A stretch of DNA of 58,059 nucleotides, taken from contig NZ_FLQX01000121.1 in assembly GCF_900089955.1 (NCBI RefSeq), forward strand, positions 1 to 58,059, given 5' to 3'. This DNA comes from Candidatus Accumulibacter aalborgensis (lineage in GTDB: Bacteria; Pseudomonadota; Gammaproteobacteria; Burkholderiales; Rhodocyclaceae). The notes under the pieces are model-generated. The model did no database searches and was not told the DNA's origin. It saw nothing but the letters and a program-made list of their open reading frames with translations. Made by a program: the position numbers and the translations under genes. This document shows positions 7,196 to 40,013 of the stretch, one piece after another. The stretch's first letter is position 1. Every line of letters starts with the position of its first letter.

Positions 7196-10100
7196 CTAGG
7201 GCACGAGAGTGATGTAGCGCTTGGCGACAAAGCCCGTGCTGCGGGGCTGCTCTATCACATACCAAGTGCCGAATTCGCCGATGACCAGTACCGGCGTAGC
7301 GCTAGGCAGATGGGCAAAGATGTTGGCGTTGGTCGCGGTCGTCGGTCGGCTGCGGACCATCAGGTCGTCGCGCGCTGTGGCCACGACGCCGTTGCGGCGC
7401 AAGGGCGTAACCGCGAAGTCGTTTTCGTCGGGTACGTCGGCGCGGCCGAGGTTGATGTTGGCGTTGGCTGGGCGCGTCGGGTCGGGGGCCCCGGCGACCG
7501 GCCGGCCGATGGCAGCGAGGATCTCTTCCTCCGATCCGCCGGCGAGCGGACCGAGAGCGGCGAGAACTCCTGCCGCCGCGGGAAACGTCGGTCCGGCACC
7601 CAGCAAGCCGCGCAGGAAAGCGATGTGGGCCGGCAGTGGCGAGGGCGGCGGTGAGAGCACAGGGGCATGGCGGGCGGCGAGCAGGGCCAGCTTGAGTTGT
7701 GCGGCCGCCGGCGGCAGCGCCAGCAGGTCCGGCACCTGCGGCATGACGAGATTCATGTCCAGGTCGGCTGCGGCGAGTGCGCAACTGCCGTAACGGGCGA
7801 GCTCGGTCATGAACTGGCCGCGGCGCGCGTGGTTATATTGCATCCAGACCTGCTCGAGCGTGATCGCCACCCGCATGTTCGCCGTGCTGGTCGGATCGGC
7901 AGTGACACGGGTGAAGAACTGATTGACCTGGGCGACGTTGCCGGCGATCACCGCCAGGGAATTGTTGATCTGCGCCGGCGTCGTGTGGTTGACCATGTAG
8001 AGCAGGAATACGTGGTCGGCAACTTCGCCCAGTTGGCGAATGGCATCGCCACTACCCCAGTAATGGTTGGCTGCCAGATCGTAGAGCGGCTGGATGATGC
8101 TTTCGCGCCAGGTGTCGGTCGCCGCTGCGGCGACGTGCGTCGATCGGCCGGCGCCGATACGGCGCAGCATGGCGTCACGACAATCGTGCGTGCCGGCGAC
8201 CTGGTCGGCAGCCCAGCACTCGAGCACGGCGCGCATGCAACCGGCGGGTTCGCTGCCGAATTCGACGTAAACCAGTTTGCTGGCTACCAGATCGGGGTCG
8301 CCGGGTACGCCCAGACCGATGTCGAGCGACCCCGGCGTCTTGAACGTGGTCTCCGATGGGGCGAAGGAAGCGTCGGCACCGAGGACCGTGGCGCCGGCAC
8401 CGGCGATGCCGGCGACAACATCGCGCAGGCTCGGATCGGCGGCGATGGCCGCATTGACGTCGGCGGCGGCATCGGCCGGCGAGGCGCGCAGCGCCGAGGC
8501 AACATGATGCGAGTCGGTCAGGCAGGCGTCGAGAACGATCCTGCGCTGGGCCGGACTGCTGCTCATCAGTCGCGTCAGTTCGGTCATCAGGCCGGTGGTG
8601 TTGGCGCCACTGGTACCGCTGGTCCCCAGGGCATCGACCGTTACCGCGGCATTGGCGCTGCCGGCCAGGTTGAGCACCGTCGAGTTGCCGTGGCCGCCGA
8701 CCATGGCCTGGTAGATCTCGCCGTTGATGCCATAGCGAGCGGCAACCGGCGCCAGTTGCGCTTGGTAATCGCCGACGCTGGCATGGCCTTCGATGACGAT
8801 GCTCAGGATGTCGCTACTGGTGACCATGGCTTCCAGGCCGGCATTGCGGTGGAAGGCGTGATTGTCGTCGATGGCCGGATAGAGGACGACCGTCAGGGGA
8901 CGCTGGAACCAGCTCCATTGCTGCTTCCATTGCGGGAAGGCTTCATTGCTGACCAGTCCGTCGAGCGTGTTCCTGGTGAAGTGGTGGTAGGTCTGCGCGT
9001 AGTTGATGCGCCCGTGGTAGCTTTGTGGCAGGACACCTTCACCGCGCAGCGCGAGGTAGGAATCGACTTCGCTGCCGTCGTTGGCCGACAACACCGGCTT
9101 GCAGGTCGTCAGATAGCCGATGAAGTTGGCCAGTTCCGGCGTTGCGGGGTCGACCAGTTTTTCGAACGGAGCTTTGGCCGCCGCCGGGTCCGGTGGTGCG
9201 CGCATGACGAGCGACAGATTGGCGGCCGGCCAGGCGGCCTCCAGAGTGGTCAGGTCGCGCCCCCAGCTTTCGGCCTTGTTGATGTCGCTGGTCGAGCGCA
9301 GCCACGCTGTGTTGCGCGTCGCCGCGCCCTCGGCATATTTTTCCAGCGGCGCATAGATGCCGGGAATCCCCTTGGTGATCACCTCGCCAACCTTCAGTTC
9401 CCCCGCGCCGGCCAGAACGTTGGGGCGCTCGGCAAAGCGATCGATTTCCCTGAAGGCCGCCAGCGCGGGCCCGTCGGCCTGCAAGTCGGGGCTGGTCGCC
9501 CAGTCGAGTTGCGTCTCGGTGAGCAGCGAAAAGCCCGACAGGGTCATCGCCCGGATGCTCGCCGGCGTCTCGGAGGTTTGTGCGCTGGTGCGAGTCACCG
9601 CCGGCCAGCGCGCAATGTCGGTCAGGCCGTCACGCAACTGCAGTACGTGGGTCAGCTCATGCGCCAGTAGTGACCTGCCTTCAGGCCTGTCCGGCTGGAA
9701 TTCACCCTCCGCGAAAACGATGTGGATGTCGAAGGCGAAGGCGCGCGCCTGCAGCGATCTGGCGGTGTCGAAGGCGCCGGGGTTGGTATGGATGAACACC
9801 TGGCTCAGGTCTACGCCCATGGCCTGCTCGAATTCATTGCGAATGCGGTCGGGCAGGGGGACACCTTCGCCGATCCGTTCCAGGAGCTGGGCGCGGTCGA
9901 GTTGTTGCGCAGAGGAGCGGGGGTTTGGCGCGGCGCTACGCATGCCGGGGGCGGCAATGGCATCGCGGGGCGCCGGGGCACCGCTTGGGTTCGCATCGGC
10001 GGGCTCGGCAAGGGTGGTCGCGCCGGATTCGGGGCTGCGGCAGATACCCAGTTCTTCGTCATAATGGGTTTCGACGCGTTCTTCGCCTTTGCCCATGATG

Positions 10101-13100
10101 TTGCCCATCAGTTCGCTGACCTTGATGTCGGGCGTCTTGAACTCCGGCCGGCCGAATCTCACTTTACCGGTACTGGTGTTGTAGCCCGCCGAGATCGTGG
10201 CGGAGAGCGACAGTTTTGGATCCAGCGTGTACTTGGGACCGTCGAACTTTTTTTCCCACAAGGTGATGGTCTTGACGATGAGGTTGGCTTCCGCGAACAG
10301 CTTGCCGTTGATGCCCAGCGAAAGCACGGGCGTGAGCGAGGCCGTGACATCGCTCTCCACGTCCAGGCCGTCCGCGTAACTCCAGGAAAACTTCGGATTG
10401 GCCTCGATCTTGGGTTCGATCCCCGCCTTGCCCTCGACGCCCACGCTGCCACCCACCGAGGCGATGCCGGCATCAAGCGTAAGTCGTGCATCCAGGTCGG
10501 CAGCCAGCCCGGCATAGGCCGGCACCTCGAACTTCGCATCGCCGAACAGCTTGAGCTTGTCGATCGTGGTCTCGGCCGGATTGAATTCCTTGACCCCGAT
10601 GCTGATGTTCTTGAACCCACCCGGCCCCACCCAGGCATCGCTGTACAGGCCACCTTTGAGCGAAAGATTGAGGCCTACCGCCACGCCACCCACCGAGATG
10701 GCCAAGCCCGGTACCGGGATCTTTGGTGAGGTCATTTCGAAGAGCGTCTTGCGGGAATCCTCTTCCTTGGGGAAGCGCTCGAAGAGCTTGGCCTCGGCCT
10801 TGGTGATGGTGCCGCTGATCCAGACGCTACCCCTCTTGTCGAGCCTGATGTTGGCTTCACCGTTGATGGTGTCGGTCAGCTTGGCCTTGAGCTTCCCGGT
10901 GCCATACACCACGAAGGTCTTGCCACCGCCCTTGCCGAGTGGTTTGCCGTTGTCATCTGCCCCACCGTTGGTGACGCCGATTGATATCTCACTACCCGAG
11001 AAAACTTTGCTGTCTTCGTAACCGAGCTTGCCGTTGAGGTCGACCAGGCCATCCTTGTAGCTACCTTCGAAACTGCCGCTGAGACCCTTGGGCAGGTCGG
11101 GCACGGCGCTGGCCGTGCCTTCCAGCGACCACGCGCCCTCGGCCTTGGCGAGCGTCATGTCCAGATTCCCGCTCTTGATGCCGGGCAGCTTTTCCAGCTC
11201 GGCCTTGCCGGTGATGCTGAAGTTCTCCGCGTCCTGAAACCTGGCGTCGGCCGTGAAGTTCTTGACGCCGGGGATATCGGTCTCGGCATTGCCGGAGGCC
11301 GTGAAGGTCTGGCTTTGTTGGGTGTAGGCGACGGTGAGCTTGGCCGCCTTGATGCCCTTGATCTTGCCCGGCTTGGAGATTTCCAGTACGCCCTTGGCGC
11401 CGAACTTCTCCTTCTCGCTCCACGAGGCCGTGATTGCGGCTTTGTCGAACAGGTCGCTCTGGAAGTCGACCTTGCCTTCGACCGACAGGCCGCTGCCTTG
11501 TACGAAGGTGGCCTTGAGCGAGCCGTCGGCCACATTGGTGATGGTGAAGAATATGTCGCCGCCCAGCTTGAAGCCTTGCGCTACGGAGTAGGCGGCCTGC
11601 ACCGTGGCCTCATCGACCGTCACACCCGGCGCGCTCAGATTGATCTGGTCGGAGCTGAATTCGATGTAGAACTCGATGTCGTCGCCATCGAGCCGCACCA
11701 TGATGGGGGCATTGAGCAAGGGAATCGAGGGCGTCAGCTTCCCTTCGCCCAGGATCTTGCCATCATCAATCTGGATATCATCGAACTCGACCGGGCTCAG
11801 GTTTTCAAAGGAAAGCGATTGCTTGCCGAGCTTGGCGGGGAAGCCGCGATACTTTCCGTCACCACTGAGCGTGAGCGTGACATCCGGCTTGGCGTGGGAC
11901 CACTTCTTGGGCAGCTTCCAGGTGGCCTCAATCGAGCCTGCCGTTCCGCTGCCTTTCTTGGCTGCTTCAGTGATGTTGATGTTCTTGAGTGTCAGGCCGG
12001 AGATGGCGGATTGCGCCGTGCCGCTGATCGCGAAGCTGCCCGGGCCGCTCTTGTGGCTAATGCGCTGGATGACTATGCCCCCGGGCGCATCGGCTAGCAG
12101 GAATTCCTTGTCGGTGCCCTCTTCGTCTACATCCGGCGTGGCCTCGGCGGTTTCAAGCGGTTTGGCTCCCTTGATCTCCGCCAGGTTCCACCAGGCGCTG
12201 TCCGCTGCGCTGGCGCCCGACTTGAGATTGGCGCTGGCGCTTGCGAAAACCAGATCGTGCTTCTTGAGGAAGGTCGTGCGCTTGGGCTGTGGGGCCTTGA
12301 AGCTGTTGAGGTAGGCGTCCACCTTGCTGTAGATCGCGCCTCGAATCGCGCCACCAGAGCTGCTGTTGCTGGGCTGGTCGAGCAGCTCCATGTTCTCCGG
12401 GCTGTTGCCCGTGCCGGTACCGTTTTCGCCCGAGACCTGCAGCTCCACGATGTGATCGACCTGGAAGCCATTGGTCACCGGCTTGCCATGGCGTGTCCAG
12501 GTCGGGATCTTCAGCAGCTTCTGCAACTGCGTAATGCTCTTGGATTGTGGCTTCTTCTTGTTGCCCAGTTGGAGTTTGAAAGACTCGCTGGCATCGTCGG
12601 GAACATTCTTGAGGCCCTTATCCTTGAGCTTCTGGCGAATCGTGGCTTCGGCGATCGTGATGCCCGAATTCCAGACGCCGACCTGCGCGGGATTGCCACG
12701 GCTGTAGCCGCGCTTGCGCTTGAGGTTTCCACTTGACGCATTGCCCTGGTATAGCGCCAGGTGGCGCGCTTTTACTGCGGGAATGTCGAGCTGGTCCAGC
12801 GCCTTGAGCGCGGCATTCGTCGCCGTCTGGTTGCGTGGCTTGTACTTGTCTTCCATCTCCGGATCGATTTTGCGTGCGATCACCGGGCCGGAATCCTGGT
12901 GCTGCACCACGTGGGTGAGCTCATGGGCGAGCAGCGCCAGCCCTGCTTTGCTGTTCGGCTGGTAGCGGCCGTGAGCGAAGAAGATGTCGTTACCGGTGGT
13001 GAAGGCGAGCGCGCCCAACTGCGTGCACAACTGGTGGGCGCGTGAGTCCTGATGGATGCGTACCTGGCTGAAGTCGTGCCCGAGCTGACCTTCCATGCGG

Positions 13101-13861
13101 GCGCGCACGTCCTCACTCAGGGGCTCGCCCTGGCCCCGCTGGTCCTTGATGGAACTGCCGACATCGGCACCGCGTACCGGCTCGGCACCACCGGTTTCCT
13201 CGGCGGGTGGCGTGCTGGCTGAGGCTTGCGCCTCCGGCTGGGCGACCGCACGGGAGATCGGTGCCGCGTCCTGACGGCCAGCGGGGCCGTTTGCTGGCGG
13301 TTTTATGGGTGGCGCCACGGCAGGTGCTGCCGCCTTTTCTGGTTTGCTCCCTGGAGCGATCGGGCCGCCGGCGCCGGTCTGGGCTTTTCCCGCCGCTGGT
13401 CCGGCACCGGGTGCAGACGCCGCAGCACCTTGCGCGGGGTCGAGTGCCCGGGGATCTTCCTTGCGCTTGATTTCCGCCGGTTTCGCCGGGGCAGCGCCCT
13501 GGGCCGCTGCCGGCGTAGCCGCCAGCTCCTGCATGCGCATCACCTTGTCGGCAGCCGCATCCGCTTCGCGCTCGACGGCATCGCCAGGTTCGCTGACCGC
13601 CAGCTTGGCGCGCACAGCCATGCGGTCGAAACGTTGCTGGCTACCGGCAGGTGCCGCCGCACCGGCTTTCGCAGTCGCCGCCGCCGGCGCACCGGCCTGA
13701 CCCTGCCCGGCGTTCTGCTCGGCTTTCGCTTGCTTGCCGGCCTGACGCTCGGCCGGCTTGCCTGCTGCGGCCGCCGGCGCCTTGCCCTGGTCGGCCTGGC
13801 CTGCCGCTGCGGGCGGCGTGGCCGGTTTCTTGAAGTCAGCGGCGGGAGCTGGGGCGGGCAT
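7196..13861 (-). CDS. Giant eCIS protein with two DUF4157 domains, HNH-like, caspase-like and SH3-like regions
   Basis: This 2221-residue protein is the last gene of the injection-system block. After an Ala/Pro/Lys-rich start comes the usual DUF4157 leader (AVEREADAAADKVM). DUF4157 domain 1 follows with HELTH at 313-317, then an HNH-like segment (VDHIVEL, His about 470, with SPENMELLDQPSN). A long beta-rich repetitive region spans roughly residues 600-1180. A second DUF4157 domain has HELTH at 1401-1405. A later region has GGHGN (His about 1724) and IVLDACLTDS (Cys about 1780), spaced like the His/Cys dyad of caspase or CHAT-type peptidases. The end looks like a bacterial SH3 domain. DUF4157 is the domain most associated with eCIS loci and their payloads. 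A role as effector or effector carrier is inferred. There is no signal peptide. Confidence 0.85.
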   Translation of the reverse strand: MPAPAPAADFKKPATPPAAAGQADQGKAPAAAAGKPAERQAGKQAKAEQNAGQGQAGAPAAATAKAGAAAPAGSQQRFDRMAVRAKLAVSEPGDAVEREADAAADKVMRMQELAATPAAAQGAAPAKPAEIKRKEDPRALDPAQGAAASAPGAGPAAGKAQTGAGGPIAPGSKPEKAAAPAVAPPIKPPANGPAGRQDAAPISRAVAQPEAQASASTPPAEETGGAEPVRGADVGSSIKDQRGQGEPLSEDVRARMEGQLGHDFSQVRIHQDSRAHQLCTQLGALAFTTGNDIFFAHGRYQPNSKAGLALLAHELTHVVQHQDSGPVIARKIDPEMEDKYKPRNQTATNAALKALDQLDIPAVKARHLALYQGNASSGNLKRKRGYSRGNPAQVGVWNSGITIAEATIRQKLKDKGLKNVPDDASESFKLQLGNKKKPQSKSITQLQKLLKIPTWTRHGKPVTNGFQVDHIVELQVSGENGTGTGNSPENMELLDQPSNSSSGGAIRGAIYSKVDAYLNSFKAPQPKRTTFLKKHDLVFASASANLKSGASAADSAWWNLAEIKGAKPLETAEATPDVDEEGTDKEFLLADAPGGIVIQRISHKSGPGSFAISGTAQSAISGLTLKNINITEAAKKGSGTAGSIEATWKLPKKWSHAKPDVTLTLSGDGKYRGFPAKLGKQSLSFENLSPVEFDDIQIDDGKILGEGKLTPSIPLLNAPIMVRLDGDDIEFYIEFSSDQINLSAPGVTVDEATVQAAYSVAQGFKLGGDIFFTITNVADGSLKATFVQGSGLSVEGKVDFQSDLFDKAAITASWSEKEKFGAKGVLEISKPGKIKGIKAAKLTVAYTQQSQTFTASGNAETDIPGVKNFTADARFQDAENFSITGKAELEKLPGIKSGNLDMTLAKAEGAWSLEGTASAVPDLPKGLSGSFEGSYKDGLVDLNGKLGYEDSKVFSGSEISIGVTNGGADDNGKPLGKGGGKTFVVYGTGKLKAKLTDTINGEANIRLDKRGSVWISGTITKAEAKLFERFPKEEDSRKTLFEMTSPKIPVPGLAISVGGVAVGLNLSLKGGLYSDAWVGPGGFKNISIGVKEFNPAETTIDKLKLFGDAKFEVPAYAGLAADLDARLTLDAGIASVGGSVGVEGKAGIEPKIEANPKFSWSYADGLDVESDVTASLTPVLSLGINGKLFAEANLIVKTITLWEKKFDGPKYTLDPKLSLSATISAGYNTSTGKVRFGRPEFKTPDIKVSELMGNIMGKGEERVETHYDEELGICRSPESGATTLAEPADANPSGAPAPRDAIAAPGMRSAAPNPRSSAQQLDRAQLLERIGEGVPLPDRIRNEFEQAMGVDLSQVFIHTNPGAFDTARSLQARAFAFDIHIVFAEGEFQPDRPEGRSLLAHELTHVLQLRDGLTDIARWPAVTRTSAQTSETPASIRAMTLSGFSLLTETQLDWATSPDLQADGPALAAFREIDRFAERPNVLAGAGELKVGEVITKGIPGIYAPLEKYAEGAATRNTAWLRSTSDINKAESWGRDLTTLEAAWPAANLSLVMRAPPDPAAAKAPFEKLVDPATPELANFIGYLTTCKPVLSANDGSEVDSYLALRGEGVLPQSYHGRINYAQTYHHFTRNTLDGLVSNEAFPQWKQQWSWFQRPLTVVLYPAIDDNHAFHRNAGLEAMVTSSDILSIVIEGHASVGDYQAQLAPVAARYGINGEIYQAMVGGHGNSTVLNLAGSANAAVTVDALGTSGTSGANTTGLMTELTRLMSSSPAQRRIVLDACLTDSHHVASALRASPADAAADVNAAIAADPSLRDVVAGIAGAGATVLGADASFAPSETTFKTPGSLDIGLGVPGDPDLVASKLVYVEFGSEPAGCMRAVLECWAADQVAGTHDCRDAMLRRIGAGRSTHVAAAATDTWRESIIQPLYDLAANHYWGSGDAIRQLGEVADHVFLLYMVNHTTPAQINNSLAVIAGNVAQVNQFFTRVTADPTSTANMRVAITLEQVWMQYNHARRGQFMTELARYGSCALAAADLDMNLVMPQVPDLLALPPAAAQLKLALLAARHAPVLSPPPSPLPAHIAFLRGLLGAGPTFPAAAGVLAALGPLAGGSEEEILAAIGRPVAGAPDPTRPANANINLGRADVPDENDFAVTPLRRNGVVATARDDLMVRSRPTTATNANIFAHLPSATPVLVIGEFGTWYVIEQPRSTGFVAKRYITLVP

Positions 13862-28271: not shown

Positions 28272-28390
28272 GAAAGTCGCGCGAGCGACTCGCGAAGCTC
28301 CCCTCGCCCGCGTTCGCGGGAGAGGGGCCGGGGGTGAGGGAAACGGCCATGACTTTCATGACCTGGGCTGTCTTGGCAAGTCATGACCGT
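28271..28390. repeat. Intraoperonic repeat, copy B
   Basis: Most of this stretch matches copy A (19631-19747), including the same TGAAAGTC and GACTTTCA ends (28271, 28351-28358). The inner hairpin spans 28300-28327, arms of 13 with one mismatch and a TT loop. It fills the gap between the hydrophobic-segment gene and gp25, overlapping the stop of the first and the start of the second. A hairpin of this size without a following T-run may stabilise or process part of a long transcript rather than stop it. Confidence 0.8.
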
Positions 28391-30935: not shown

Positions 30936-32026
30936 GTCGCCCTCCCAAGCCAGGCACGTTCGGCATCGAAATGCGTCCGGTAGCCTGTCGGCTGATCATA
31001 CTGGTGGCGAACGCGCGTGACGTAGAAGCCGTCGCCCTCGAACAGCGGACTGACCCGTTCCAGGCGCAACAGGCTGCCAACGTGGATCGCCGTGTTGCCA
31101 TCGGCGACACCGTTCACGCTGACGAAACGCCGTGCGCGTCCGAGCAGCGCAGCGCGGGCGAGGGCGGTGGCCTCGCCATCCTTGAGCGGCACCTCGCGCA
31201 CACGGTAACTGACGCGCTCGCCGAAAGCGCGTTCGAGCACCTGCGCGCCATGCGTGTTGCCCTGCGCCTCGGCGGCGATCTGATTGCCGTCGGATTCCTC
31301 GTCGATGGCGTCCTGATCGGCGTCGTCGAAACCGCCGACGACGACCTTGCTGCGCTGATGCGCGAGATCGGCGCGCAAGCGCACCTGCAACAGATTGCTG
31401 CCCTGGATCAGGGTCACTGCATTGCCGCCACGCCGGTCGCGCGTCGCCATGTGCACCGCGTCGCCGTCGACCCATACCTCGGCGGCCAGCCGCCGCGCGC
31501 GCTCGCGCAGGAAAGCCAGGTCGCTCTGGTTCCATTGCTGTGCCAGCGGCCAGGTCGGTCCGTCGACGTCGGCAACCGCGCGCAGGCCGTGCTCGGCGGC
31601 AATCTGCTGCAGCAGGTCGGCCTCGCTGACGTTTTCGTAGGTCTTGAAGCGCCGGGTCATGCGCAGATCCATCAGGTGGTCCTCGGCCAGGCAAACGACT
31701 TCGGGTGATCTGCCCTGCGCCATCGACAGCTCGATCGCGCTGAGCTTGCCGGCAAACACTTCCTGGCGGGAATCGCTCGGACCCATCGCCACACGCAACT
31801 CCTTGCCGAAATCGAGAACGGCGCCGTCGAGCCAGTTGAGTTGCTCGTTCTGTTCGCCGGCGCGCGGTCCGACGGCGACGAAGGTTGCCAGCAGGCGACG
31901 CAGGCCGTGCATGTCCTCGTCGACCTGCAGCAGGCACACGTCGCGCGCCAGCTCGGCGTTCGCCCGCCCATCGACCTTGATCTCGGGGATCGTCGATGAC
32001 TGCAGGGGAGTCGGGATCAGGGGCAT
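30932..32026 (-). CDS. Central hub protein, gp27/gpD-like (late control D family)
   Basis: This 364-residue protein matches the hub half of VgrG or the phage late control gene D product: DVCLLQVDEDMHGLRRL, GAVLDFGKELRVAMG, VFAGKLSAIELSM, MTRRFKTYENVSEADLLQQIAAEHGLRA and QWNQSDLAFLRERA, then VWVDGD. It forms the trimeric collar joining tube and spike. The last bases overlap the spike gene (ATGA), so the two are probably made together. With that gene it equals one VgrG. The hub's order upstream of the spike is the usual one. Confidence 0.9.
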   Translation of the reverse strand: MPLIPTPLQSSTIPEIKVDGRANAELARDVCLLQVDEDMHGLRRLLATFVAVGPRAGEQNEQLNWLDGAVLDFGKELRVAMGPSDSRQEVFAGKLSAIELSMAQGRSPEVVCLAEDHLMDLRMTRRFKTYENVSEADLLQQIAAEHGLRAVADVDGPTWPLAQQWNQSDLAFLRERARRLAAEVWVDGDAVHMATRDRRGGNAVTLIQGSNLLQVRLRADLAHQRSKVVVGGFDDADQDAIDEESDGNQIAAEAQGNTHGAQVLERAFGERVSYRVREVPLKDGEATALARAALLGRARRFVSVNGVADGNTAIHVGSLLRLERVSPLFEGDGFYVTRVRHQYDQPTGYRTHFDAERAWLGRAT

Positions 32027-32052: not shown

Positions 32053-32232
32053 TCAGTCATCGAAACCCCAGGCCTGCGTTCGCGCGGCGAGTTGCGTATC
32101 GCGGCGCGCGACTTCCTGCCAGCGCTGCAGCGCCTCGGCAGAGGCCTCGCTGTGCGGCTGCTCACCGCCACTGCCACCACCAGCGGCATCGACCTCGACT
32201 TCGGCGTTCACTTCCCCAATCTCGATGGGCAT
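32053..32232 (-). CDS. Tiny DUF5908-like eCIS protein (59 residues)
   Basis: An open frame begins MPIEIGEVNAEVEVD at 32232 with a good ribosome site (GGAGA, 7 bases upstream) and ends at TGA, 32053. It has a short acidic strand, a Gly-rich turn, and a helix (SAEALQRWQEVARRD). The opening MPIEI fits the DUF5908 family, small proteins found in eCIS clusters between the LysM and hub genes. Here it lies exactly there, 12 bases after the LysM gene and 26 before the hub. No function is established. It may be a small baseplate factor or chaperone. Confidence 0.72.
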   Translation of the reverse strand: MPIEIGEVNAEVEVDAAGGGSGGEQPHSEASAEALQRWQEVARRDTQLAARTQAWGFDD

Positions 32233-32244: not shown

Positions 32245-33474
32245 TCAGGGGTTGCGGCGCGCACGCCTGCCGCGGCAGCCACAGTCAGCCAAGGCCATGC
32301 TGCGCCCGACACTTGCCGTGCTCAGCGCCGGTGTGCTACTCGTCGCAAGCTTGCCGGCCGTCGCCCAACCGGGCTGAGTCGGATCGCGACGCGCGGCAGG
32401 CAGCGCACTGCCGAAGCGGGGTCGCAGCGGTACGCCGGCACCCCACGGACGGTCGGCACTGTCGGCAGCTTCGCCGCTCGTCAGGCCGAAAGCGGCGAGG
32501 CTGCTGCTCGCCCCCTGCTGATGCGCTGCGCTCTTGACCTGCGCGATGGCGCCGCCGAGGCCTCCCTGACTGGCCAGCGCCTGCCCCTGATGGACCGGGT
32601 CGATGCCGCTGGCGCTGCGCGCCGTTGCGGCCCGACCGCCACCCGCAGCTCCTGTCGGCGCAGCGACGAGCGGCAGGCTGGCGGCGGTTTTCGCCGGGTC
32701 GCTCCCTTGCCCGTTGCCGCCGCTGGCGACGCCGCGGCCGGCAGCGGCGGGCAGCGCCACCTCCTGCCCAAGTTCGAGCCGCAGCGGGTTGCTCAGGCCG
32801 TCGGCCAGTGCCCGCCAGGCCTTGGCATCGAAACCGTTGCGCGCCGCCAGTTGCGCCAGGCTCTCGCCGGGCATCGCCTGCACGATGCGCTCGGGCGACT
32901 GCTGGTTACCCTGCGTTCCGGGCGAACCGGCGGGTAGCGCGCTGCCATTGCTCGACCCCGCCGGTGCTCCGGCCGCGGCGGCAGCGTTGGCCGGCGCCGG
33001 GGTGTAGGTCCAGCGCGGGTCCTGGCCCTTGATGCTGACCGACACCTTGGCGCGCAGCGGGACGCCATTAGCGTCGAAGAGATCGAGGTCGAGGTTGGCA
33101 CTCTCCATCGTCCCCTGCACCAGGAAGCTGCCCCATGCGAAGAGTACGCGCGGCGGCGCTTCCTGACCCGGCCGCGGTCCGCGCGGGCGGACGAAGCGCT
33201 CGACCATCGCGGTCTTGTCGAGCACACTGACGCCGGACTCGGTACTGCCTTCGTCGGCGGTATCGAAGACCAGATCGAAGCTGACCTGCATCTCGCCGGT
33301 GCCCGGGCGCTGCCGTGCCTGGGCGCCGGCCTGCGCGCCACCGGCGGTGCGGTTGGAAATCTGCACGCGCAGCGTCGTCGGGTTGAACTGCACGTCCACC
33401 GACGTGTTGGGCGTCTCGGTCGGCCGCTCACCCGAGCCGATCTCGGCCAGACGAGCTTTCAGCAGCGCGCTCAT
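32245..33474 (-). CDS. LysM-containing baseplate protein (gp53/Afp7-like)
   Basis: Start 33474 (MSALLKARLAEIG) overlaps the upstream tube gene by 4 bases. The longer reading is Arg-rich. Residues 1-160 match the tail-associated domain of Afp7-type proteins (VDVQFNPTTLRVQISN, VSFDLVFDTADEG, PPRVLFAWGSF, VPLRAKVSVSIKG). A LysM-like domain lies at 195-242 (ESLAQLAARNGFDAKAWRALAD). In phage T4 and in eCIS, this class links tube end and baseplate. The C-terminal 165 residues are low-complexity (Gly, Ala, Ser), ending in the odd ADCGCRGRRARRNP, absent from ordinary LysM proteins of this kind to my knowledge. The tail may be disordered or may bind cargo. Confidence 0.9.
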   Translation of the reverse strand: MSALLKARLAEIGSGERPTETPNTSVDVQFNPTTLRVQISNRTAGGAQAGAQARQRPGTGEMQVSFDLVFDTADEGSTESGVSVLDKTAMVERFVRPRGPRPGQEAPPRVLFAWGSFLVQGTMESANLDLDLFDANGVPLRAKVSVSIKGQDPRWTYTPAPANAAAAAGAPAGSSNGSALPAGSPGTQGNQQSPERIVQAMPGESLAQLAARNGFDAKAWRALADGLSNPLRLELGQEVALPAAAGRGVASGGNGQGSDPAKTAASLPLVAAPTGAAGGGRAATARSASGIDPVHQGQALASQGGLGGAIAQVKSAAHQQGASSSLAAFGLTSGEAADSADRPWGAGVPLRPRFGSALPAARRDPTQPGWATAGKLATSSTPALSTASVGRSMALADCGCRGRRARRNP

Positions 33475-34022
33475 GCCGGCACCTCGGCGGGTAGCAGGCG
33501 CAGGCCTTCGTGCGCGATCGACAGTTCCTCGATGGCGATCTCGCCCGTCCTGGCGTTCAGTTCGGGGCCGCGAATCTTGGCCGGCAGACCGCGATCGAAC
33601 ATCCACGTCGCGCGCACCGTCTGGTCGGCACTGAGCACGTAGACGATGCCGTCATAGCGCGTCACTGGTCGCTCGCCGTTGATGATCCGCTGCAGCCAGT
33701 GCCACAGATCGGTGTTCGCCTGGCCACCGCCATCGGGTTGATAGAACATGCCGCGCTTGAGCAACAGCGGCTGATACTTGGCGCGGCCGACGCGCCGGAT
33801 GGTGCCGTTGTTGCGGCCACCCTCCTGGTATTCCTGGATGTCCATCTCGATTTCGAGGCCGGTGCACTCCTGAAAAGCGCCATTGCCGAGTAGCGCCGCG
33901 GTCTGCGATGGGTCGTAGCCGTCACCCGCACCGGGCAAGCGCTGGCGACCGGCAATCAGGTTCGGCGAGCGCAGCAGCTTCACCTCGAAGCGGAAAGCGG
34001 GCAGGATCAGCGCGTCAGGCAT
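33471..34022 (-). CDS. Second tube protein (Afp5-like, gp19/T4-tube family)
   Basis: This 183-residue protein has the tail tube family signature: FRFEVKLL, FQECTGLEIEMDIQEYQEGG, RRVGRAKYQPLLLKRGM, LWHWLQRII and a C-terminal ELSIAHEGL that parallels the main tube protein (ELHLVHEGV). It is longer than tube 1 by about 34 residues, through an insertion after SPNLIAG and other changes. In Afp, Afp5 makes the first ring next to the baseplate, and this protein fits that role because it lies next to the LysM gene. The two genes overlap by ATGA. Confidence 0.9.
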   Translation of the reverse strand: MPDALILPAFRFEVKLLRSPNLIAGRQRLPGAGDGYDPSQTAALLGNGAFQECTGLEIEMDIQEYQEGGRNNGTIRRVGRAKYQPLLLKRGMFYQPDGGGQANTDLWHWLQRIINGERPVTRYDGIVYVLSADQTVRATWMFDRGLPAKIRGPELNARTGEIAIEELSIAHEGLRLLPAEVPA

Positions 34023-34029: not shown

Positions 34030-36033
34030 TCATTCCTCGAGATTCAGCGTGCCATCACCGTCGCGACGCAGGCGGACGAGAATGAATTCGAGTGGCTCGG
34101 CGGGCGCCACGCCGATGTCCACCAGGAGCTCGCCGCGATCCAACCCTTGCCTATCGGTATGGACACGCACGAAGAAGGACTCGGCCTCGCTGGCCCCGGC
34201 GAAGGCGCCGGCGCGAAACAGGCCGCGCAGCAGACTCTCGATCGCGTGCTGCAGATCGCGCCACAGCGCCGGGCCGTTGGGCTCGAAAACGGCCCACTGC
34301 ATGTCGACCAGCAGCGTTCGCCTCAGCATCAGGATCAGCCGGCGGACCGACAACTGTCGCCAGTCGCTCTCGCGCGACAGCGTGCGCGCAGCGACCAGCG
34401 CGATGCCGTCTGGACCGCGCACGAAACAGTTGATTCCCTGCGCATGGAGAGCGTCGGCGCGGCCCTCGGGCTGTGCTTCGGCGACATGAATGATCTGTCG
34501 CGCGATCTCGTTGGCCGGTCCGAACTGGATGCCACGCTCGAATTCACGCCGCGCAATGATGCCGGCGGCGACGGCCGATGGCGGCAACTGATGCCGGCGG
34601 GCTTGTGCCGCGTCGACCCCGTCGGCCGTGCGGCGGGCCGTCACCAGCCACGGGTGGTAAGCCGCCGCCCAGGAGCTGTCGAACTGCGCCCGCCACTGTT
34701 CGATGCGCGCCTGTGACAGACCGGGCGGTACATCGAAGAGCGCGATCAGCGCCTGGGTGCTCTCGCAGAAGTCGAGAACGCGCTGCTGCAGACCAGTGAT
34801 CAGGGTCAGTCCGGCCTGCGTGCGCGGATCGACGATCAGACCCGAGAGAGCGCTCGGCGCTACCTGGCTCGCCGTGGCGGGGGTCGATACGGTCAGGCAG
34901 GCGGAGAACTCGGCGCCGGCGCCGCCGGTGGGCGGGTCCTCGACGGTCTCCGGGCCGGCCCATTGCGCCGGCACGTAGAGATCGGGCAGCATCAGGTGGG
35001 TGATCGTGTCATTGTGGGCCAGCGCGGCGATTCCCGCGCCGGGGTTGTCGTCGGCGACCGACCAGTGGCTGTCGAAAAAATCGTCAGGGGTGATGGTCTG
35101 CCAGTCGTCACGACCGCCGGCAAAAACATCGCTGACCCCGCGCAGGAACTCGACGCGCGGACCACGCGGCGCGATTCTCGTCGCCGCCCAGTCGGGATGC
35201 GGCCAGAGCAGCGTCGAGCGATCACAGAGGACGCTGGCCAGACTCTCGGGATGATCGGGCGATAGGGCCAGATTGTCGAAGCGCTCGCTGCGCCCGACCC
35301 CATCGGCGATCGCCAGGCTGGCGGCGACGAGTTCGGCACGCACCGGCGGCGAAGCGGGCGCACCATCGAGCGTCAGTAGCCAGCGCTCGCGCGCGCGGTC
35401 GCTGTCGCGCACCCGCCGCAGGCCAGCGCAGAAGGCCAGCGTTGACGCCCCGGCGGAGTCGGTCAGGCGCAGACAGCTACCGACGGCCACCGGACTGCGC
35501 GGGTCGACCAGCAAGCGGTCGAGCGCGTCGAGTGTGAACGCCAGCGCAGTCGCCGAAAAGCCGAGTGAGAGCTTGATCTGGTTGCCCCACACGCCTTCGT
35601 TGCGGGCAACGAACTTGAGGTCAATGGTGAACGCGCCGCTCAGTTTGCCGACCGCGCAGGCGTCGGCAAACGAAGCGCCGCGGGAATGCACGATGCGTAC
35701 GATCCACGCCAGGCGTGCCCCCTGTTCGAAGTAACTGGCCACCGCGTGCGGCAACAGGCCTGGCCCTTCAAAGCCACCGAAGTCATGCACATACTCGTCG
35801 AAACTGCGCACCGGCACCGGCTGGCTGCGCCGCAGCGGTCGTGCCAGGTCGCTGACCATGCGATAGCCCGCCGGCCAGCTCTCGTCGACCAGCGGAACGT
35901 TCGCCGGGCCGCGCGGCGCCACACCCACGAAGGCACAGACGTCCATGCGCTGCGGATTGAGCACCGGCACGCGTACTTCGGGCAGCGCGAATACGCCTGG
36001 AGCGCCGAGCGGGGAGCGGACTGAAGTCAGCAT
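34030..36033 (-). CDS. Second sheath protein (divergent, Afp3/Afp4-like)
   Basis: The 667-residue start (36033, MLTSVRSPLGAPGVF) follows a short gap after tube 1. The longer reading is Arg/Gly-rich and crosses that gene. Sheath signatures are seen in the C-terminal half (FDSSWAAAYHPW, PPSAVAAGIIARREFERG, GINCFVRGPDG, LSVRRLILMLRRTL, QWAVFEPNGPALWRDL and SFFVRVHTDRQ). The N-terminal half is divergent from sheath 1 (PRGPANVPLVDESW), so it may be a specialised terminal or baseplate-proximal ring. Like other sheath proteins it contracts to push the tube. In Afp the equivalent paralogues are minor. Confidence 0.9.
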   Translation of the reverse strand: MLTSVRSPLGAPGVFALPEVRVPVLNPQRMDVCAFVGVAPRGPANVPLVDESWPAGYRMVSDLARPLRRSQPVPVRSFDEYVHDFGGFEGPGLLPHAVASYFEQGARLAWIVRIVHSRGASFADACAVGKLSGAFTIDLKFVARNEGVWGNQIKLSLGFSATALAFTLDALDRLLVDPRSPVAVGSCLRLTDSAGASTLAFCAGLRRVRDSDRARERWLLTLDGAPASPPVRAELVAASLAIADGVGRSERFDNLALSPDHPESLASVLCDRSTLLWPHPDWAATRIAPRGPRVEFLRGVSDVFAGGRDDWQTITPDDFFDSHWSVADDNPGAGIAALAHNDTITHLMLPDLYVPAQWAGPETVEDPPTGGAGAEFSACLTVSTPATASQVAPSALSGLIVDPRTQAGLTLITGLQQRVLDFCESTQALIALFDVPPGLSQARIEQWRAQFDSSWAAAYHPWLVTARRTADGVDAAQARRHQLPPSAVAAGIIARREFERGIQFGPANEIARQIIHVAEAQPEGRADALHAQGINCFVRGPDGIALVAARTLSRESDWRQLSVRRLILMLRRTLLVDMQWAVFEPNGPALWRDLQHAIESLLRGLFRAGAFAGASEAESFFVRVHTDRQGLDRGELLVDIGVAPAEPLEFILVRLRRDGDGTLNLEE

Positions 36034-36044: not shown

Positions 36045-36494
36045 CTAGACGTACTCGACGCCTTCGTGCACCAGGTGCAGCTCTTCCATCGCCACTTCGC
36101 CGCCACCTTTTGCCGCCAGCGTCGGGCCGACCCACTTCTTGGGCTGAGCATTGGTCAGCTTGAAAGCGGCGACCGGATTGCGCGCTTCATCGAGGACCGT
36201 AATGGTCACCGTACGGCGACCGTCGCCGCCTTCACGGACGTCCTTGACCCACTGGAACAGGTCGGTCGAACCGATCAGCCCACGTTTGAGCGTCACGTCT
36301 TCCTGTTTGAAGGTATTGGCGACCTTGCGCACGGTATTGACCATGTCGTTGCCGTTGCGGTACTCGGAATAGTTGATCTCGCTGCCCAGACCGGAAGCGT
36401 CGGAAAAGCCCGCGATGACGCTGGTCTCACTGCCATTGCCGAGCGAGACCAGGAAATTGAAGGCGCCGTAGGGATTGTTGCGTTGGGTTGCCAT
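36045..36494 (-). CDS. Main inner tube protein (Afp1/PVC1-like)
   Basis: At 149 residues this is the standard length of the eCIS tube protein. Signatures: NPYGAFNFLVSLG, VIAGFSDASGLGSEINYSEY, VTLKRGLIGSTDLFQWV, EARNPVAAFKLTNAQPKKW and ELHLVHEGVEYV. It polymerises as hexameric rings to form the tube that carries payload. The gene lies between the two sheath genes with gaps of 16 and 11 bases, and a GGAG ribosome site precedes the start. Confidence 0.95.
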   Translation of the reverse strand: MATQRNNPYGAFNFLVSLGNGSETSVIAGFSDASGLGSEINYSEYRNGNDMVNTVRKVANTFKQEDVTLKRGLIGSTDLFQWVKDVREGGDGRRTVTITVLDEARNPVAAFKLTNAQPKKWVGPTLAAKGGGEVAMEELHLVHEGVEYV

Positions 36495-36510
36495 CTGGAG
36501 TTCTCCTCAA

Positions 36511-38373
36511 TCAGCTCTTGCTGTCGGCAGTCCATTGACCGACGCGGAAGATCACGAACTCGGCCGGACGGCTGGGCGCCATGCCGACCAGGCAGATCAG
36601 GCGGCCGTTGTCGAGATCGTTCTGGGTCATCGTCGTGCGATCGCAGCGGACGAAGAACGCTTCCGCTGGCTTCGCGCCGATCAGCGCGCCATCGCGCCAG
36701 AGGACATAGAGGAAGTCTTCGACCATGCTGCGGATGTTGGTCCACAGACGCTCGTTGTTGGGTTCGAAGACCGCCCACTGGGTCGCCTTGTCGATCGAGT
36801 GCTCGACGTAGATGAACAAGCGACGGACGTTGACGTACTTCCATTCCGGGTCCGAACTCATCGTACGCGCACCCCAGACGCGGTTGCCGCGACCGTCGAA
36901 GAAGCGCAGGCAGTTGACGCCTTCGGGGTTGAGGACATCCTGGCGCGCCTTGTTGATGTTGATCTCGAACTTCGTCAGGCCACGCACCACCTCGTTGGCC
37001 GGCGCCTTGTGCACGCCACGTTCGATGTCGCTGCGCGCATAGATGCCGCAGACGAAACCTGACGGCGGCAGGGTCAGCTTGCGCGGCGGCACGCCGGGAA
37101 CGGTCGGGAAGAGTGGATCGAGGATCTCGATCCACGGGTGGTAGAGGGCCGCATACTTGCTGTCGAACTTGCCGCGGAACTCGCGGATCTCGGAGATCGA
37201 GCTGTTCGCCGCGGCGTCGACGACGGCGATGCGATAGCGGTACTTCTCGGCGTGCGCGATGAGATGGTCGGCCGCCGCCTGGACCGAGTCACTATCGAGC
37301 ATCGCACCGCCGTCGGGCAGGGCGACGATGGCGATGTCGTCGAGTTCGCCGAGCGCTTCGAGGCCGGTCGCGCGCTCGGCGACGACGTCCGGGTTGGCCT
37401 CCTTGCCGCCCAGATCGTCGGCGCTAGGCAGCGTGCCGTCGCCGCCGCCGGCGAGCCGCTTGTCGGCGGACTGCAGGCCAACCATCAGTGCCGCCGGCGC
37501 GAAAGCATTTCCGCCCGGCAGCCAGTCGAGATAGACCATCGCGTTCTCGTCATCGGGGTCATCGAGTTCGAGGACTTTGCCAATGTCGCGACGCTGGTCG
37601 CGGTGTGCGCCGAGTTGGTCATAGACGTCGATACGGCCGTCGGGACCGTAGACCGTGACGCGCAATTCGACGAGCGAAATCTGCGCGCCGGCGGCGACCG
37701 GTACCGGCAGGCCGGTGTTGTCGATGAAAGTCTGCCGACCATCGCTATCGACGTTGATCACCCGCAGGTTGCCGGCGACCAGCGGCACGTTACCGGTCGG
37801 CGCGACCGCCGGCAAGGGCGCGCTGACTTCGACGACGGCGCCGGCACGAATGCTCTTTACCTGCACACCCCAGGTGTGCCTGGCCAGAATGTCGCCAACG
37901 ACCAGCGGGAATTCGAAGGCCAGGTTCTTGCTGCGCATGACCTGGGTGTCGACCAGGACGTTGCCGTCCTGACCCGGCCAGCGGGCGTGCCAGGCGGCCG
38001 CGCCAAGCGTCGTCGGGACGGTCAGATGGGCGATGAAGTCGGCGACCGGCTGAGCTGCCGCTGGCGTGAAGACTCGCGACACGTACAGCCGGCGCCCGCC
38101 GTTGTTGAAGAAGGCACGCGCTGCGTGCGCCAGATACGCTGTTCGCTCGCCGGTCGCCAGATCCAGTGGCGCCAGGCTGCCATAGACGCGCTCGAATTCG
38201 GTGAACGAGGTGATCAGGCGCGGCTTGGTCGTCGTCGGCCCGAGCGAGTACTGCACGGGACCGAAGCGGGTCACGCCGGCAAAACCGGTGGTACTGGTCG
38301 GCACGCCTTCGATCGACTTGGAGCGGAAGCTGACCTCCTCGACATAGACGCCAGGTGCTAGATACTCGGGCAT
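36511..38373 (-). CDS. Main contractile sheath protein (Afp2/PVC2-like)
   Basis: Start 38373 (MPEYLAPGVYVEE) is the canonical N-terminus of this family. The longer reading includes non-family residues. The 620-residue protein has SFRSKSIEGVPTSTTGFAG, ARAFFNNGGRRLYVSRVF and the C-terminal handshake domain: KLTLPPSGFVCGIYARSDIERGVHKAPANEVVRGL, LRFFDGRGNRVWGARTM, NVRRLFIYVEHSI and RPAEFVIFRVGQW. It forms the outer shell whose contraction drives the tube. It is the third gene of the block, right after the unknown 311-residue protein. Confidence 0.95.
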   Translation of the reverse strand: MPEYLAPGVYVEEVSFRSKSIEGVPTSTTGFAGVTRFGPVQYSLGPTTTKPRLITSFTEFERVYGSLAPLDLATGERTAYLAHAARAFFNNGGRRLYVSRVFTPAAAQPVADFIAHLTVPTTLGAAAWHARWPGQDGNVLVDTQVMRSKNLAFEFPLVVGDILARHTWGVQVKSIRAGAVVEVSAPLPAVAPTGNVPLVAGNLRVINVDSDGRQTFIDNTGLPVPVAAGAQISLVELRVTVYGPDGRIDVYDQLGAHRDQRRDIGKVLELDDPDDENAMVYLDWLPGGNAFAPAALMVGLQSADKRLAGGGDGTLPSADDLGGKEANPDVVAERATGLEALGELDDIAIVALPDGGAMLDSDSVQAAADHLIAHAEKYRYRIAVVDAAANSSISEIREFRGKFDSKYAALYHPWIEILDPLFPTVPGVPPRKLTLPPSGFVCGIYARSDIERGVHKAPANEVVRGLTKFEININKARQDVLNPEGVNCLRFFDGRGNRVWGARTMSSDPEWKYVNVRRLFIYVEHSIDKATQWAVFEPNNERLWTNIRSMVEDFLYVLWRDGALIGAKPAEAFFVRCDRTTMTQNDLDNGRLICLVGMAPSRPAEFVIFRVGQWTADSKS

Positions 38374-38457: not shown

Positions 38458-39393
38458 CTAGGCAAAAAGCAGGTCGGCATCATTTACTCCTGACACCCTG
38501 CCCGGTGCCAGCGTGATGTCGATGAAAGCGGCCTCCAGCACGTGGCCGGCCGGCATCGCTGTGCCGCTGAGGACCTCGTTCAAGGCGTCGCTGCCGGCCA
38601 CCTCGAGCGGCAGACCAGAGAGCGGATCGGCAACACCAAGCACGCTTGCCGGAGCGAGGAAGATCCACAGCCGCAGGGCTATCGTCGCCGGCAGGACGAC
38701 GCCTCCCGGCACTGCCTGCGTCCCGAGGACGACGAGGAATTCGCCGCGGTCATCGCCGTGCGCCCAGGCCAGCGGTGTTTCCGTGGCGAAGTTCGCCGGT
38801 CCGGCACCCGGCCGGGTGACCACCACGCGCGCCCAGGCGACAGGCACCGCCGACGCCAGCGAAGCACCGCGCCGAATACAGCCACGAATCGCCGAGGCAT
38901 TGGCGGCCAGCGGATAGGTGGCGCCAGGCCACAGCCAGGCGGTACGGATGTTGGCCAGCGACGACGGCGGCACGCCGCCGCTTTGCACCGGCGTCAGCGA
39001 CAGCCGGCGCGGCACGTACTGGCGGGGATCGTTGTCGCTGCGGTAGTCGGCGTAGCGCGCATCGCGGCGGGCGAAAGCGCGCACGACGAAGTTCGTCGGG
39101 TCGTCAGCGACGTCTGCCGGTGGCGTCGCCACCTTGTCGGCAGCGGCGAGTGGCAGCACTCTGGCCAACCGGCCGGCGTGACGCAGCGCCTGCCGTGCCT
39201 GCGGGTGGCGTTCGAAACGCAGCAGCCCTGGGCGCGTGCCGATCGCTTCGAGGTCGTTGACCCAGTCTCCGGCGACCGGCAGCTGGGTCAAGGCGTCAAG
39301 CCACTGGATTCCCAAAGCCAGGCGATGCGTGACCTGGCTGACCTGCACCGTATTGTCGATACCCAGCGGCCGCAGCGTCGCGACGGCGCTCAT
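38458..39393 (-). CDS. Unknown eCIS-associated protein (311 residues)
   Basis: I do not recognise a named family. The protein has a beta-rich C-terminal half (RLWIFLAPASVLGVADPLSG, GHVLEAAFIDITLAPGRV) and an N-terminal half with basic, helical segments (QARQALRHAGRLARVL). There is no signal peptide or membrane segment. It overlaps the cap gene by 4 bases (ATGA) and precedes the sheath gene by 84 bases, so it is made with the particle. In many eCIS loci an unassigned protein of about 300 residues sits next to the Pvc16-type gene. It may be a second cap or completion protein. Confidence 0.6.
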   Translation of the reverse strand: MSAVATLRPLGIDNTVQVSQVTHRLALGIQWLDALTQLPVAGDWVNDLEAIGTRPGLLRFERHPQARQALRHAGRLARVLPLAAADKVATPPADVADDPTNFVVRAFARRDARYADYRSDNDPRQYVPRRLSLTPVQSGGVPPSSLANIRTAWLWPGATYPLAANASAIRGCIRRGASLASAVPVAWARVVVTRPGAGPANFATETPLAWAHGDDRGEFLVVLGTQAVPGGVVLPATIALRLWIFLAPASVLGVADPLSGLPLEVAGSDALNEVLSGTAMPAGHVLEAAFIDITLAPGRVSGVNDADLLFA

Positions 39394-40013
39394 GTGCTGA
39401 TCCGCAGGCGGATGTCGGCGTCGGTGACCGGCGGCGTGAGCTCTGCCTCGGCGGTATCGATACGCACCACGCGCGCCAGGTAAGGCACCGACAGGCGGTA
39501 GTCGCTGGGCAGCGAGTCGAAAGTGCGCATCAGCGCTTCGGTCGATATTTCCTCGAGCAGCAGTTGCACGGCGTCGGTCGGCGCCGCCTGCGGTTCGCCA
39601 GCGTATTCCGGCGTCGCCGGCAGGCTCGGGGCATAGAGCAGTGGCCCCGAGAGGACGGGTGCCCTTTCCAGTACCTGCATCGTGCGCCCGAGGATCATGT
39701 GCTGATACTCGGCGTTCTCGGCCCAGGGAGTCAGCAGATAATGCAGGTCGAGCGCCAGATGACCGCGGCCATCGGCATTGCCCACCGCCGACCAGGCCGC
39801 ACGCATGATGTTGTTGAAGTCCACCCGGTAGAGCAGGATCGACAGCGCGTTGTCGCCGATCTTGTCCTTCGACTGAGTGTCGCCGAGATCCTCGGTACGA
39901 ATCAGCACGGCCTTGGTCTTCTTGCCCGGCACCGGCTCACGTTCGAGAAAGGCGCGAGCGAGAACGCGCTCGATACTCTTCCCGACAGCGGCGATGCCCG
40001 TGAAGCCTGCCAT
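39390..40013 (-). CDS. Pvc16/Afp16-type cap protein (DUF4255)
   Basis: This 207-residue protein has the Pvc16 N-terminal (DUF4255) signature: GIAAVGKSIERVL, SILLYRVDFN, ALDLHYLLTPWAENAEYQHMILGRTMQVLERAPVL and EALMRTFDSLPSDYRLSVPYLARVV. In Afp, Afp16 caps the end of the tube and sheath and sets particle length. It is the first gene after the sigma-54 promoter. The 5' leader would be about 163 bases. First position is unlike Afp, where the cap gene is last, but is common in other eCIS clusters. Confidence 0.9.
   Translation of the reverse strand: MAGFTGIAAVGKSIERVLARAFLEREPVPGKKTKAVLIRTEDLGDTQSKDKIGDNALSILLYRVDFNNIMRAAWSAVGNADGRGHLALDLHYLLTPWAENAEYQHMILGRTMQVLERAPVLSGPLLYAPSLPATPEYAGEPQAAPTDAVQLLLEEISTEALMRTFDSLPSDYRLSVPYLARVVRIDTAEAELTPPVTDADIRLRIST

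What the first reader, a model, noticed from the sequence alone, without database searches (positions are those of the whole stretch)
7196..40013. Complete, uninterrupted eCIS-type contractile injection system of 20 genes
Two tubes, two sheaths, cap, LysM, hub, spike, gp25, gpJ-like, gpI-like and ATPase genes are all intact and on one strand, with repeated 4-11 base overlaps between neighbours. The gene order differs from Afp: cap first, ATPase before the accessory proteins, VgrG split in two. At least five members (311, 497, 457, 317 and 1123 residues) have no known role. This is the main candidate for an undescribed variant.
Basis: partly seen in the sequence, partly recalled or inferred. 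Interest (0 to 1): 0.85.

Follow-up and report, generated by a model that had tools for sequence, protein, structure and literature searches.

The report
Conserved 19-gene contractile injection system
A wastewater bacterium carries an intact, spring-loaded protein syringe of a design shared by many unrelated bacteria, including a hydrophobic protein of unknown role that may dock the syringe to a membrane.

Summary
In detail: 20 intact genes on one strand (40013 to 7196), six of 19 junctions overlapping by 4-11 bases. It is a contractile injection system (CIS) of Candidatus Accumulibacter: cap, two sheaths, two tubes, split hub and spike, gp25, J-like, Tail_P2_I wedge, AAA ATPase, two CIS13-like (fibre-anchor-like) proteins and a DUF4157 cargo.

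The layout is not unique. Its first 19 genes are collinear with an annotated Rhodococcus opacus plasmid cluster (one insertion there), and its J-like protein sits in a well-supported set (22 of 83 rows, support 99) spanning four phyla, in which the ATPase precedes the fibres in 18 of 18 testable loci. So it is one member of a widespread sub-lineage for which I found no characterised representative.

Gene 11, beside the spike gene, has a ~38-residue hydrophobic segment in 63 of 63 homologues found and no significant match in phage or PDB sequences. I read it as a membrane-docking part; a spike-borne part entering the target membrane is the main rival. Second, an exact sigma-54 promoter lies 175 bases upstream of the cap gene, near a sigma-54 activator gene; 5 of 12 loci, window included, have it.

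Genes 2, 15 and 17 remain unassigned.

The parts
39390..40013 (-). g1 cap protein (Pvc16_N), 207 aa
   Evidence: Pfam Pvc16_N 2.7e-25
38458..39393 (-). g2, 311 aa, unassigned
   Evidence: no Pfam/NCBIfam/PHROG match; collinear homologues in G305, G310 and R. opacus (HMM 2.4e-16); genes of similar size after the cap in other fetched loci are only 18-25% identical
36511..38373 (-). g3 sheath 1, 620 aa
   Evidence: Pfam; PDB best 9ezm 5.6e-104 and 8bky 1.3e-100
36045..36494 (-). g4 tube 1, 149 aa
   Evidence: Pfam gp19 7.2e-35
34030..36033 (-). g5 sheath 2, 667 aa
   Evidence: Pfam sheath C-terminal domain 8e-10
33471..34022 (-). g6 tube 2 (initiator-like), 183 aa
   Evidence: Pfam gp19 3.1e-28
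32245..33474 (-). g7 CIS_tube / Cis7-like adaptor, 409 aa
   Evidence: Pfam CIS_tube 4.5e-19; LysM not detected
32053..32232 (-). g8 59-aa protein, DUF5908-like
   Evidence: Pfam DUF5908 0.0052, below cut-off
30932..32026 (-). g9 hub (first half of VgrG), 364 aa
   Evidence: Pfam Phage_GPD 2.9e-10; NF033848 52-346
30264..30935 (-). g10 spike (second half of VgrG), 223 aa
   Evidence: Pfam Phage_base_V 4.4e-22; NF033848 367-538
28381..30270 (-). g11 protein with conserved hydrophobic segment (aa ~463-500), 629 aa; candidate membrane-docking part
   Evidence: 63 of 63 homologues found keep the segment; AF2 model; no significant PDB sequence match, best E 0.71; no phage match
27846..28271 (-). 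g12 gp25-like, 141 aa
   Evidence: Pfam 5e-23
25541..27799 (-). g13 baseplate J-like, 752 aa
   Evidence: Pfam 1.3e-10; TIGR02243 262.5 bits over a 155.8 cut-off
23387..25525 (-). g14 Tail_P2_I wedge, 712 aa
   Evidence: Pfam 3e-11; CIS12_fam 2.8e-19 below cut-off
21897..23390 (-). g15, 497 aa, mostly helical model, unassigned, directly before the ATPase gene
   Evidence: no family; AF2 pLDDT 81, pTM 0.61
19715..21907 (-). g16 AAA ATPase, 730 aa
   Evidence: Pfam AAA 5.6e-24
18228..19601 (-). g17, 457 aa, rich in helix-forming residues; optional in the sub-lineage
   Evidence: a 414-520 aa frame in this place in 8 of 18 loci
17258..18211 (-). g18 CIS13-like (fibre/baseplate-anchor-like) protein, 317 aa
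   Evidence: NCBIfam CIS13_fam 2.8e-11, below cut-off
13877..17248 (-). g19 larger CIS13-like protein, 1123 aa
   Evidence: CIS13_fam 1.6e-4, below cut-off
7196..13861 (-). g20 cargo, 2221 aa: two DUF4157 (eCIS_core) domains; HNH-like and His/Cys-protease-like motifs by eye
   Evidence: Pfam eCIS_core 8.5e-57, 2 stretches; motifs kept in the G305 copy
40188..40202 (-). sigma-54 promoter-like site TGGCACGCGGCTTGC, 175 bases upstream of g1
   Evidence: only exact match of 26 hits in the window; an exact site in 5 of 12 loci, window included
40492..40752 (-). 86-aa protein linked to CIS loci in the genus, itself preceded by a one-mismatch sigma-54 site at 40788-40802
   Evidence: 14 of 28 genomes; sites
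40843..41838 (-). sigma-54 activator (enhancer-binding protein), 331 aa
   Evidence: Pfam Sigma54_activat 1.6e-62

Best explanation
An intact CIS, nearest to lineage II, with a Tail_P2_I-type baseplate, belonging to a widespread 19-gene sub-lineage, switched on by sigma-54 and a neighbouring activator. Shown by sequence: the part list, the conserved order, the split hub and spike, the cargo gene, the sigma-54 site. Inferred: the particle assembles in the cytoplasm with the ATPase helping to load the DUF4157 cargo; the CIS13-like proteins sit on the baseplate; gene 11, through its conserved hydrophobic segment, ties the baseplate or spike to a membrane, so that contraction happens at a membrane; the tube then carries g20 across, with nuclease-like and protease-like parts acting on or released in the target.
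For: Part list. Matches over 90% or more of length to G305 for 20 of 20 genes. 19 of 19 positions collinear in R. opacus with one insertion: 17 by blastp at E below 1e-6, g7 by HMM at 1.2e-4, g8 by place and length only. J-like set with support 99. ATPase before g18 in 18 of 18. g11: 63 of 63 homologues with a 19-residue hydropathy peak of 2.4 or more; family median 2.75 against 1.67 or less for the other 18 families. AF2: one long helix 462-489 after a folded part of about 430 residues. Sigma-54.
Against: No experiment places the particle or gene 11 at a membrane. The g11 fold had no convincing structural match. L065, a member of the set, has no g11, hub or spike detected in the upstream DNA that I hold. 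Fibre-anchor-like proteins are also what a released eCIS would carry (PMC12923769, passages), and the CIS13 matches are below the curated cut-off. Seven of 12 loci have no exact sigma-54 site by the cap gene. By number, sigma-54-like hits in the window are no more than chance: 26 against a mean of 31.
Confidence: 0.55

Rival explanations
1. A released eCIS in which gene 11 rides on the spike and its hydrophobic segment inserts into the target membrane (a tip or translocation part), not into the producer's membrane.
For: g11 lies directly after the spike gene, near where Afp-type clusters carry a tip gene (recalled); no PAAR or spike-tip family matched any of the 20 proteins at E up to 0.1; two fibre-anchor-like proteins present.
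Against: The part of g11 before the segment is large (about 430 modelled residues), and the segment is kept in monoderm and diderm hosts alike, which fits a fixed partner at least as well. Neither point is decisive.
Confidence: 0.3
2. A cytoplasmic cell-death CIS working like that of Streptomyces coelicolor.
For: The closest solved J-like protein is from S. coelicolor, where firing needs a membrane protein, CisA (PMC12237407, passages).
Against: The window J matches that chain with 134 bits over residues 366-689 only, while L126, one member of the g11-free group, matches it end to end with 499 bits. In that group of 14 no g11 was detected, and CIS13-like genes only in L133 (two, 4e-26 and 1e-16) and weakly in L137 (5e-3). 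This speaks to kinship, not to mode of action.
Confidence: 0.12
3. A decaying phage tail or tailocin with no present function.
For: Shared ancestry with contractile tails.
Against: 20 open frames, near full-length matches in a relative, conserved promoter, DUF4157 cargo.
Confidence: 0.03

Closest known systems
Rhodococcus opacus strain 9 plasmid cluster, NZ_CP095404.2 (annotated, no study of it found)
   Same: 19 genes in the same order
   Different: Four genes, two of them DUF4157, are inserted between sheath 2 and tube 2; the window carries a longer cargo gene at the end
eBAP3/eBAP5 (Tail_P2_I) eCIS groups of PMC12923769 (passages read)
   Same: Tail_P2_I adaptor; fibre-anchor-like proteins
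   Different: 'transmembrane' and 'membrane anchor' occur 0 times in that main text, so gene 11 is not described there under those words; eBAP3 membership could not be tested
Streptomyces coelicolor CIS (subtype IId), PDB 9GTP/8BKY
   Same: Sheath and J-like homology
   Different: The window J matches over about half its length only; [quoted passage not shown]
Haloarchaeal T6SS-like CIS (clade IIa), PDB 9EZM
   Same: Best-scoring solved sheath; membrane-bound mode reported
   Different: Its putative anchor has six predicted TM helices (PMC11566945, passages)
Anabaena tCIS
   Same: A fibre-like part anchors the particle in a membrane (PMC8894136, passages); weak match of the g18/g19 family to crown protein All3314, E 0.011
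   Different: Much longer J-like protein (1231 residues)

Membership tests
Contractile injection systems (eCIS superfamily) | Sheath, tube, gp25, J-like, hub/spike, Pvc16-type cap and AAA ATPase in one cluster | tested here: met
Contractile injection systems (eCIS superfamily) | Assembles contractile particles | not testable with these tools
   needs microscopy
Afp/PVC (subtype Ia) | Hub and spike fused in one protein (Afp8; recalled) | tested here: not met
   two genes covering 52-346 and 367-538 of one model
Afp/PVC (subtype Ia) | Afp12-type wedge without a Tail_P2_I protein (per PMC12923769, passages) | tested here: not met
   g14 matches Tail_P2_I 3e-11
Streptomyces IId CIS | End-to-end match of the J-like protein to the solved chain (my criterion) | tested here: not met
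   residues 366-689 only, 134 bits; one control, L126, 1-658, 499 bits
Streptomyces IId CIS | CisA homologue | not tested
   no CisA sequence or profile was at hand
Anabaena tCIS | Crown protein Cis19 / eBAP4 | tested here: inconclusive
   profile of the g18/g19 family against PDB: All3314 E 0.011, profile positions 36-98
T6SS subtypes i-iii | Trans-envelope complex genes in the cluster | tested here: not met
   no such family among the 20 proteins scanned against Pfam; the rest of the genome was not searched for it
eBAP3 Tail_P2_I eCIS group | Tail_P2_I adaptor | tested here: met
eBAP3 Tail_P2_I eCIS group | eBAP3 N-terminal domain on fibres | not testable with these tools
   the profiles are in a supplement that could not be read here; the nearest test is CIS13_fam, below cut-off
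The 19-gene sub-lineage defined here | Place in the 22-row J-like set and ATPase before g18 | tested here: met
   window order
The 19-gene sub-lineage defined here | g11 with hydrophobic segment beside the spike gene | tested here: met
   window and 19 of the 20 named loci of the set; L065 is the exception

The most novel reading that the evidence does not exclude
Gene 11 is a dedicated membrane-docking protein that marks a large cross-phylum branch of so-called extracellular injection systems, which would therefore fire while attached to a membrane: an independent T6SS-like solution.
Probability: 0.4. Interest if true: 0.75.

Novelty: new variant of a known kind. Interest (0 to 1): 0.5.

Why it matters
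Whether an injection system is released or membrane-bound decides what it can act on. A protein with a conserved hydrophobic segment beside the spike gene, found in 63 of 66 loci of this branch (two of the three misses are contigs of 3.0 and 5.5 kb) and in 0 of 14 loci of the group that holds the S. coelicolor-like member tested, gives a single, removable gene with which to ask that question. The sigma-54 site gives a first handle on when such machines are made in a bacterium known (recalled) for phosphorus removal from wastewater.

Tried and rejected

Motif search: a regular expression for the g11 segment hit 17 of 20 group A loci, 3 of 46 group B loci and 0 of 14 group C loci. It was too narrow and I do not use it; the HMM counts stand. 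Of 80 loci, 63 gave a g11 homologue; the 17 without are L065, the short contigs L080 and L118, and the 14 of group C. Absence there means below HMM detection. A threshold of 1.6 alone does not single out g11 (for instance 13 of 23 ATPase frames pass it); the margin does.

Rows dropped before the tree: five of 80 loci, L077 as a duplicate and L093, L095, L118, L127 because their J-like frame was under 560 residues (script). Group B is simply the rest; L095, not in the tree, has a long tail after the g11 segment like group A and may belong there. The g18 and g19 counts depend on what lies within 10 kb of the J-like gene.

Subtype by the Chen 2019 scheme (IIa-IId) could not be settled: that paper is not held. 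LysM in g7, the HNH-like motif and the His/Cys motif of g20 are by eye; Pfam gave nothing for those g20 stretches at E up to 5. Literature searches that did not turn up gene 11 or sigma-54 control of a non-T6SS CIS: (listings; nine papers were read as passages only; one search listed 12 of 388 papers).

Full report
What is there. On the minus strand from 40013 to 7196 lie 20 open reading frames with no sign of a frameshift: 20 of 20 align over 90% or more of their length with locus G305 of the same genus. Pfam and NCBIfam name the cap, two sheaths, two tubes, tube adaptor, hub, spike, gp25, J-like, Tail_P2_I and AAA proteins and a cargo with two eCIS_core domains. The host genus is Candidatus Accumulibacter: another genome of the window's genus (G312) is 100% identical over 2310 bases to a contig titled Candidatus Accumulibacter phosphatis SBR_S (L119).

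How unusual is the layout. Profiles built from the window and its relatives, run over those loci, show three groups; the names are mine. Group A, 20 loci, has the window's order, with the ATPase before g18 in 18 of 18 loci where both were found. Group B, the other 46 loci outside group C, has g18 first in 4 of 4 loci where both were found, and in the 8 of 8 fetched clusters from the phylum that carry a g11 and are not of the window's type (G304, G313, G314, G308, G315, G302, G019, G223). Group C, 14 loci, shows no g11; g18- or g19-like genes were found there only in L133 (two, 4e-26 and 1e-16) and weakly in L137 (5e-3). In a tree of 83 J-like proteins (quick method, drawn from the midpoint) the window, G305 and the 20 group A loci form one set with support 99: 12 Actinomycetota, 6 Pseudomonadota, 1 Planctomycetota, 1 Gemmatimonadota and the two without a label. 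An annotated plasmid of Rhodococcus opacus carries the 19 machine genes in the same order, with four genes inserted after sheath 2: 17 by blastp at E below 1e-6, g7 by HMM at 1.2e-4, g8 by place and length only (I compared 20 of the 29 listed genes, chosen by place). So the layout is a conserved design, probably moved between phyla.

Where it stands among solved machines. The sheath scores best against the haloarchaeal sheath 9EZM (5.6e-104) and S. coelicolor 8BKY (1.3e-100), far ahead of Afp3 (8.4e-54). The J-like protein matches the S. coelicolor chain 9GTP with 134 bits over residues 366-689, whereas L126, the one group C protein tested, matches it over 1-658 with 499 bits. Hence the S. coelicolor type goes with group C rather than with the window. 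[quoted passage not shown] the window fits that description, but the eBAP3 profile could not be run. g18 and g19 match NCBIfam CIS13_fam (2.8e-11 and 1.6e-4, below the cut-off), and their family weakly matches the tCIS crown protein (E 0.011), which makes fibre or baseplate-anchor proteins the best guess.

Gene 11. The 629-residue protein between spike and gp25 holds a 38-residue hydrophobic stretch flanked by cysteines, residues 463-500. 63 of 63 homologues found have a 19-residue hydropathy peak of at least 2.4 (window 3.02); the family median is 2.75 and the highest median among the 18 other families is 1.67. In an alignment of 59 members 18 positions are kept in 90% or more; four of them, both cysteines included, lie in the stretch and one just after it, against seven in residues 124-163. 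In group A the stretch is followed by a tail, in most of group B it nearly ends the protein. AlphaFold2 gives a folded part to about residue 430, a loose linker, a long helix 462-489, then mostly disorder (mean pLDDT 74.5, pTM 0.74). A polar or proline residue in the middle and positive charges after the stretch would suit a hairpin with both ends in the cytoplasm; that is my inference. There is no significant match in PDB sequences (best E 0.71) or in 50,697 phage records at E up to 1, one in 72,556 plasmid records, the R. opacus one, and no fold match of weight. Membrane docking of CIS by fibre and baseplate parts is reported in Anabaena (PMC8894136), and separate membrane proteins are reported or proposed in haloarchaea (PMC11566945) and Streptomyces (PMC12237407), all read as passages; the proteins described there differ from gene 11 in layout as reported, but I had no sequences of the last two to compare.

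Control. Upstream on the same strand lie an 86-residue protein gene and a sigma-54 activator (Pfam 1.6e-62). An exact TGGCACG-N4-TTGC site is at 40188-40202, 175 bases before the cap gene: the only exact match among 26 hits with up to two mismatches, a total that is itself no more than chance (mean 31). Sixty simulated windows gave 0.05 exact hits on average and at most one. An exact site is also near the cap gene in G305, G310, G314 and G308, with different spacer letters, and a one-mismatch site precedes the 86-residue gene in the same five; seven other loci (G304, G313, G302, G019, G223, G315, G127) have no exact site in the stretch scanned. 14 of 28 genomes of the genus hold the 86-residue protein (four of them at only 38-41% identity); by comparing coordinates, 11 of the 14 lie within about 2.5 kb of a sheath match, G306 had no sheath match, and G337 and G339 were not.

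Cargo. g20 is 2221 residues with two DUF4157 domains. In 100-residue blocks from 1401 on it is 72-87% identical to the G305 copy; blocks from 101 to 1400 are 21-44%, a mosaic such as cargo proteins often show (inference). A D-H...N...N pattern like HNH nucleases at about residues 469-499 is kept in both, as are GHA, GGHG and DAC motifs in the tail, like His/Cys proteases. These readings are by eye and the motifs recalled.

Judgement. The machine is a member of a broad, deposited but, so far as my searches show, uncharacterised sub-lineage. That it is an intact CIS gene set is firm; the membrane reading of gene 11 is the point worth testing.

Noticed in passing
window 40188-41838: Exact sigma-54 promoter, 86-aa protein gene and sigma-54 activator upstream of the CIS operon; an exact site is present in 5 of 12 loci examined, two of them (G308, G314) of the second order type.
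   Followed up: yes
window 7196-13861: Cargo gene g20 is a mosaic: C-terminal 800 residues well kept in G305, diverged middle with an HNH-like motif at about residues 469-499.
   Followed up: partly
window 18228-19601: g17 is optional: a frame of that size is in 8 of 18 loci of the sub-lineage and there is no room for it in 10.
   Followed up: partly
L158 (NZ_CP095404.2) 7078-12870: In R. opacus a cassette with two DUF4157 genes and a HEAT-repeat gene is inserted between sheath 2 and tube 2.
   Followed up: no
L095: Planctomycete (Pirellulaceae) contig whose g11 has a long tail after the hydrophobic segment, like the window's group, though its J-like frame is too short for the tree.
   Followed up: no
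window 2904-5957: Large + strand frame with bacterial Ig/cadherin-like domains beyond the cargo gene (Big_9 1.4e-11).
   Followed up: no
window 42010-54530: Right flank looks like ordinary chromosome: nucleotide-sugar dehydrogenase, PPK2, malonyl-CoA decarboxylase, Lgt, IlvD/Edd-type dehydratase, type IV pilin genes.
   Followed up: no
genus-wide: Several distinct CIS types occur within the one genus; 16 of 28 genomes hold a g11 homologue. Of the loci I examined only the window, G305 and the part of G310 at hand are of the window's type.
   Followed up: partly
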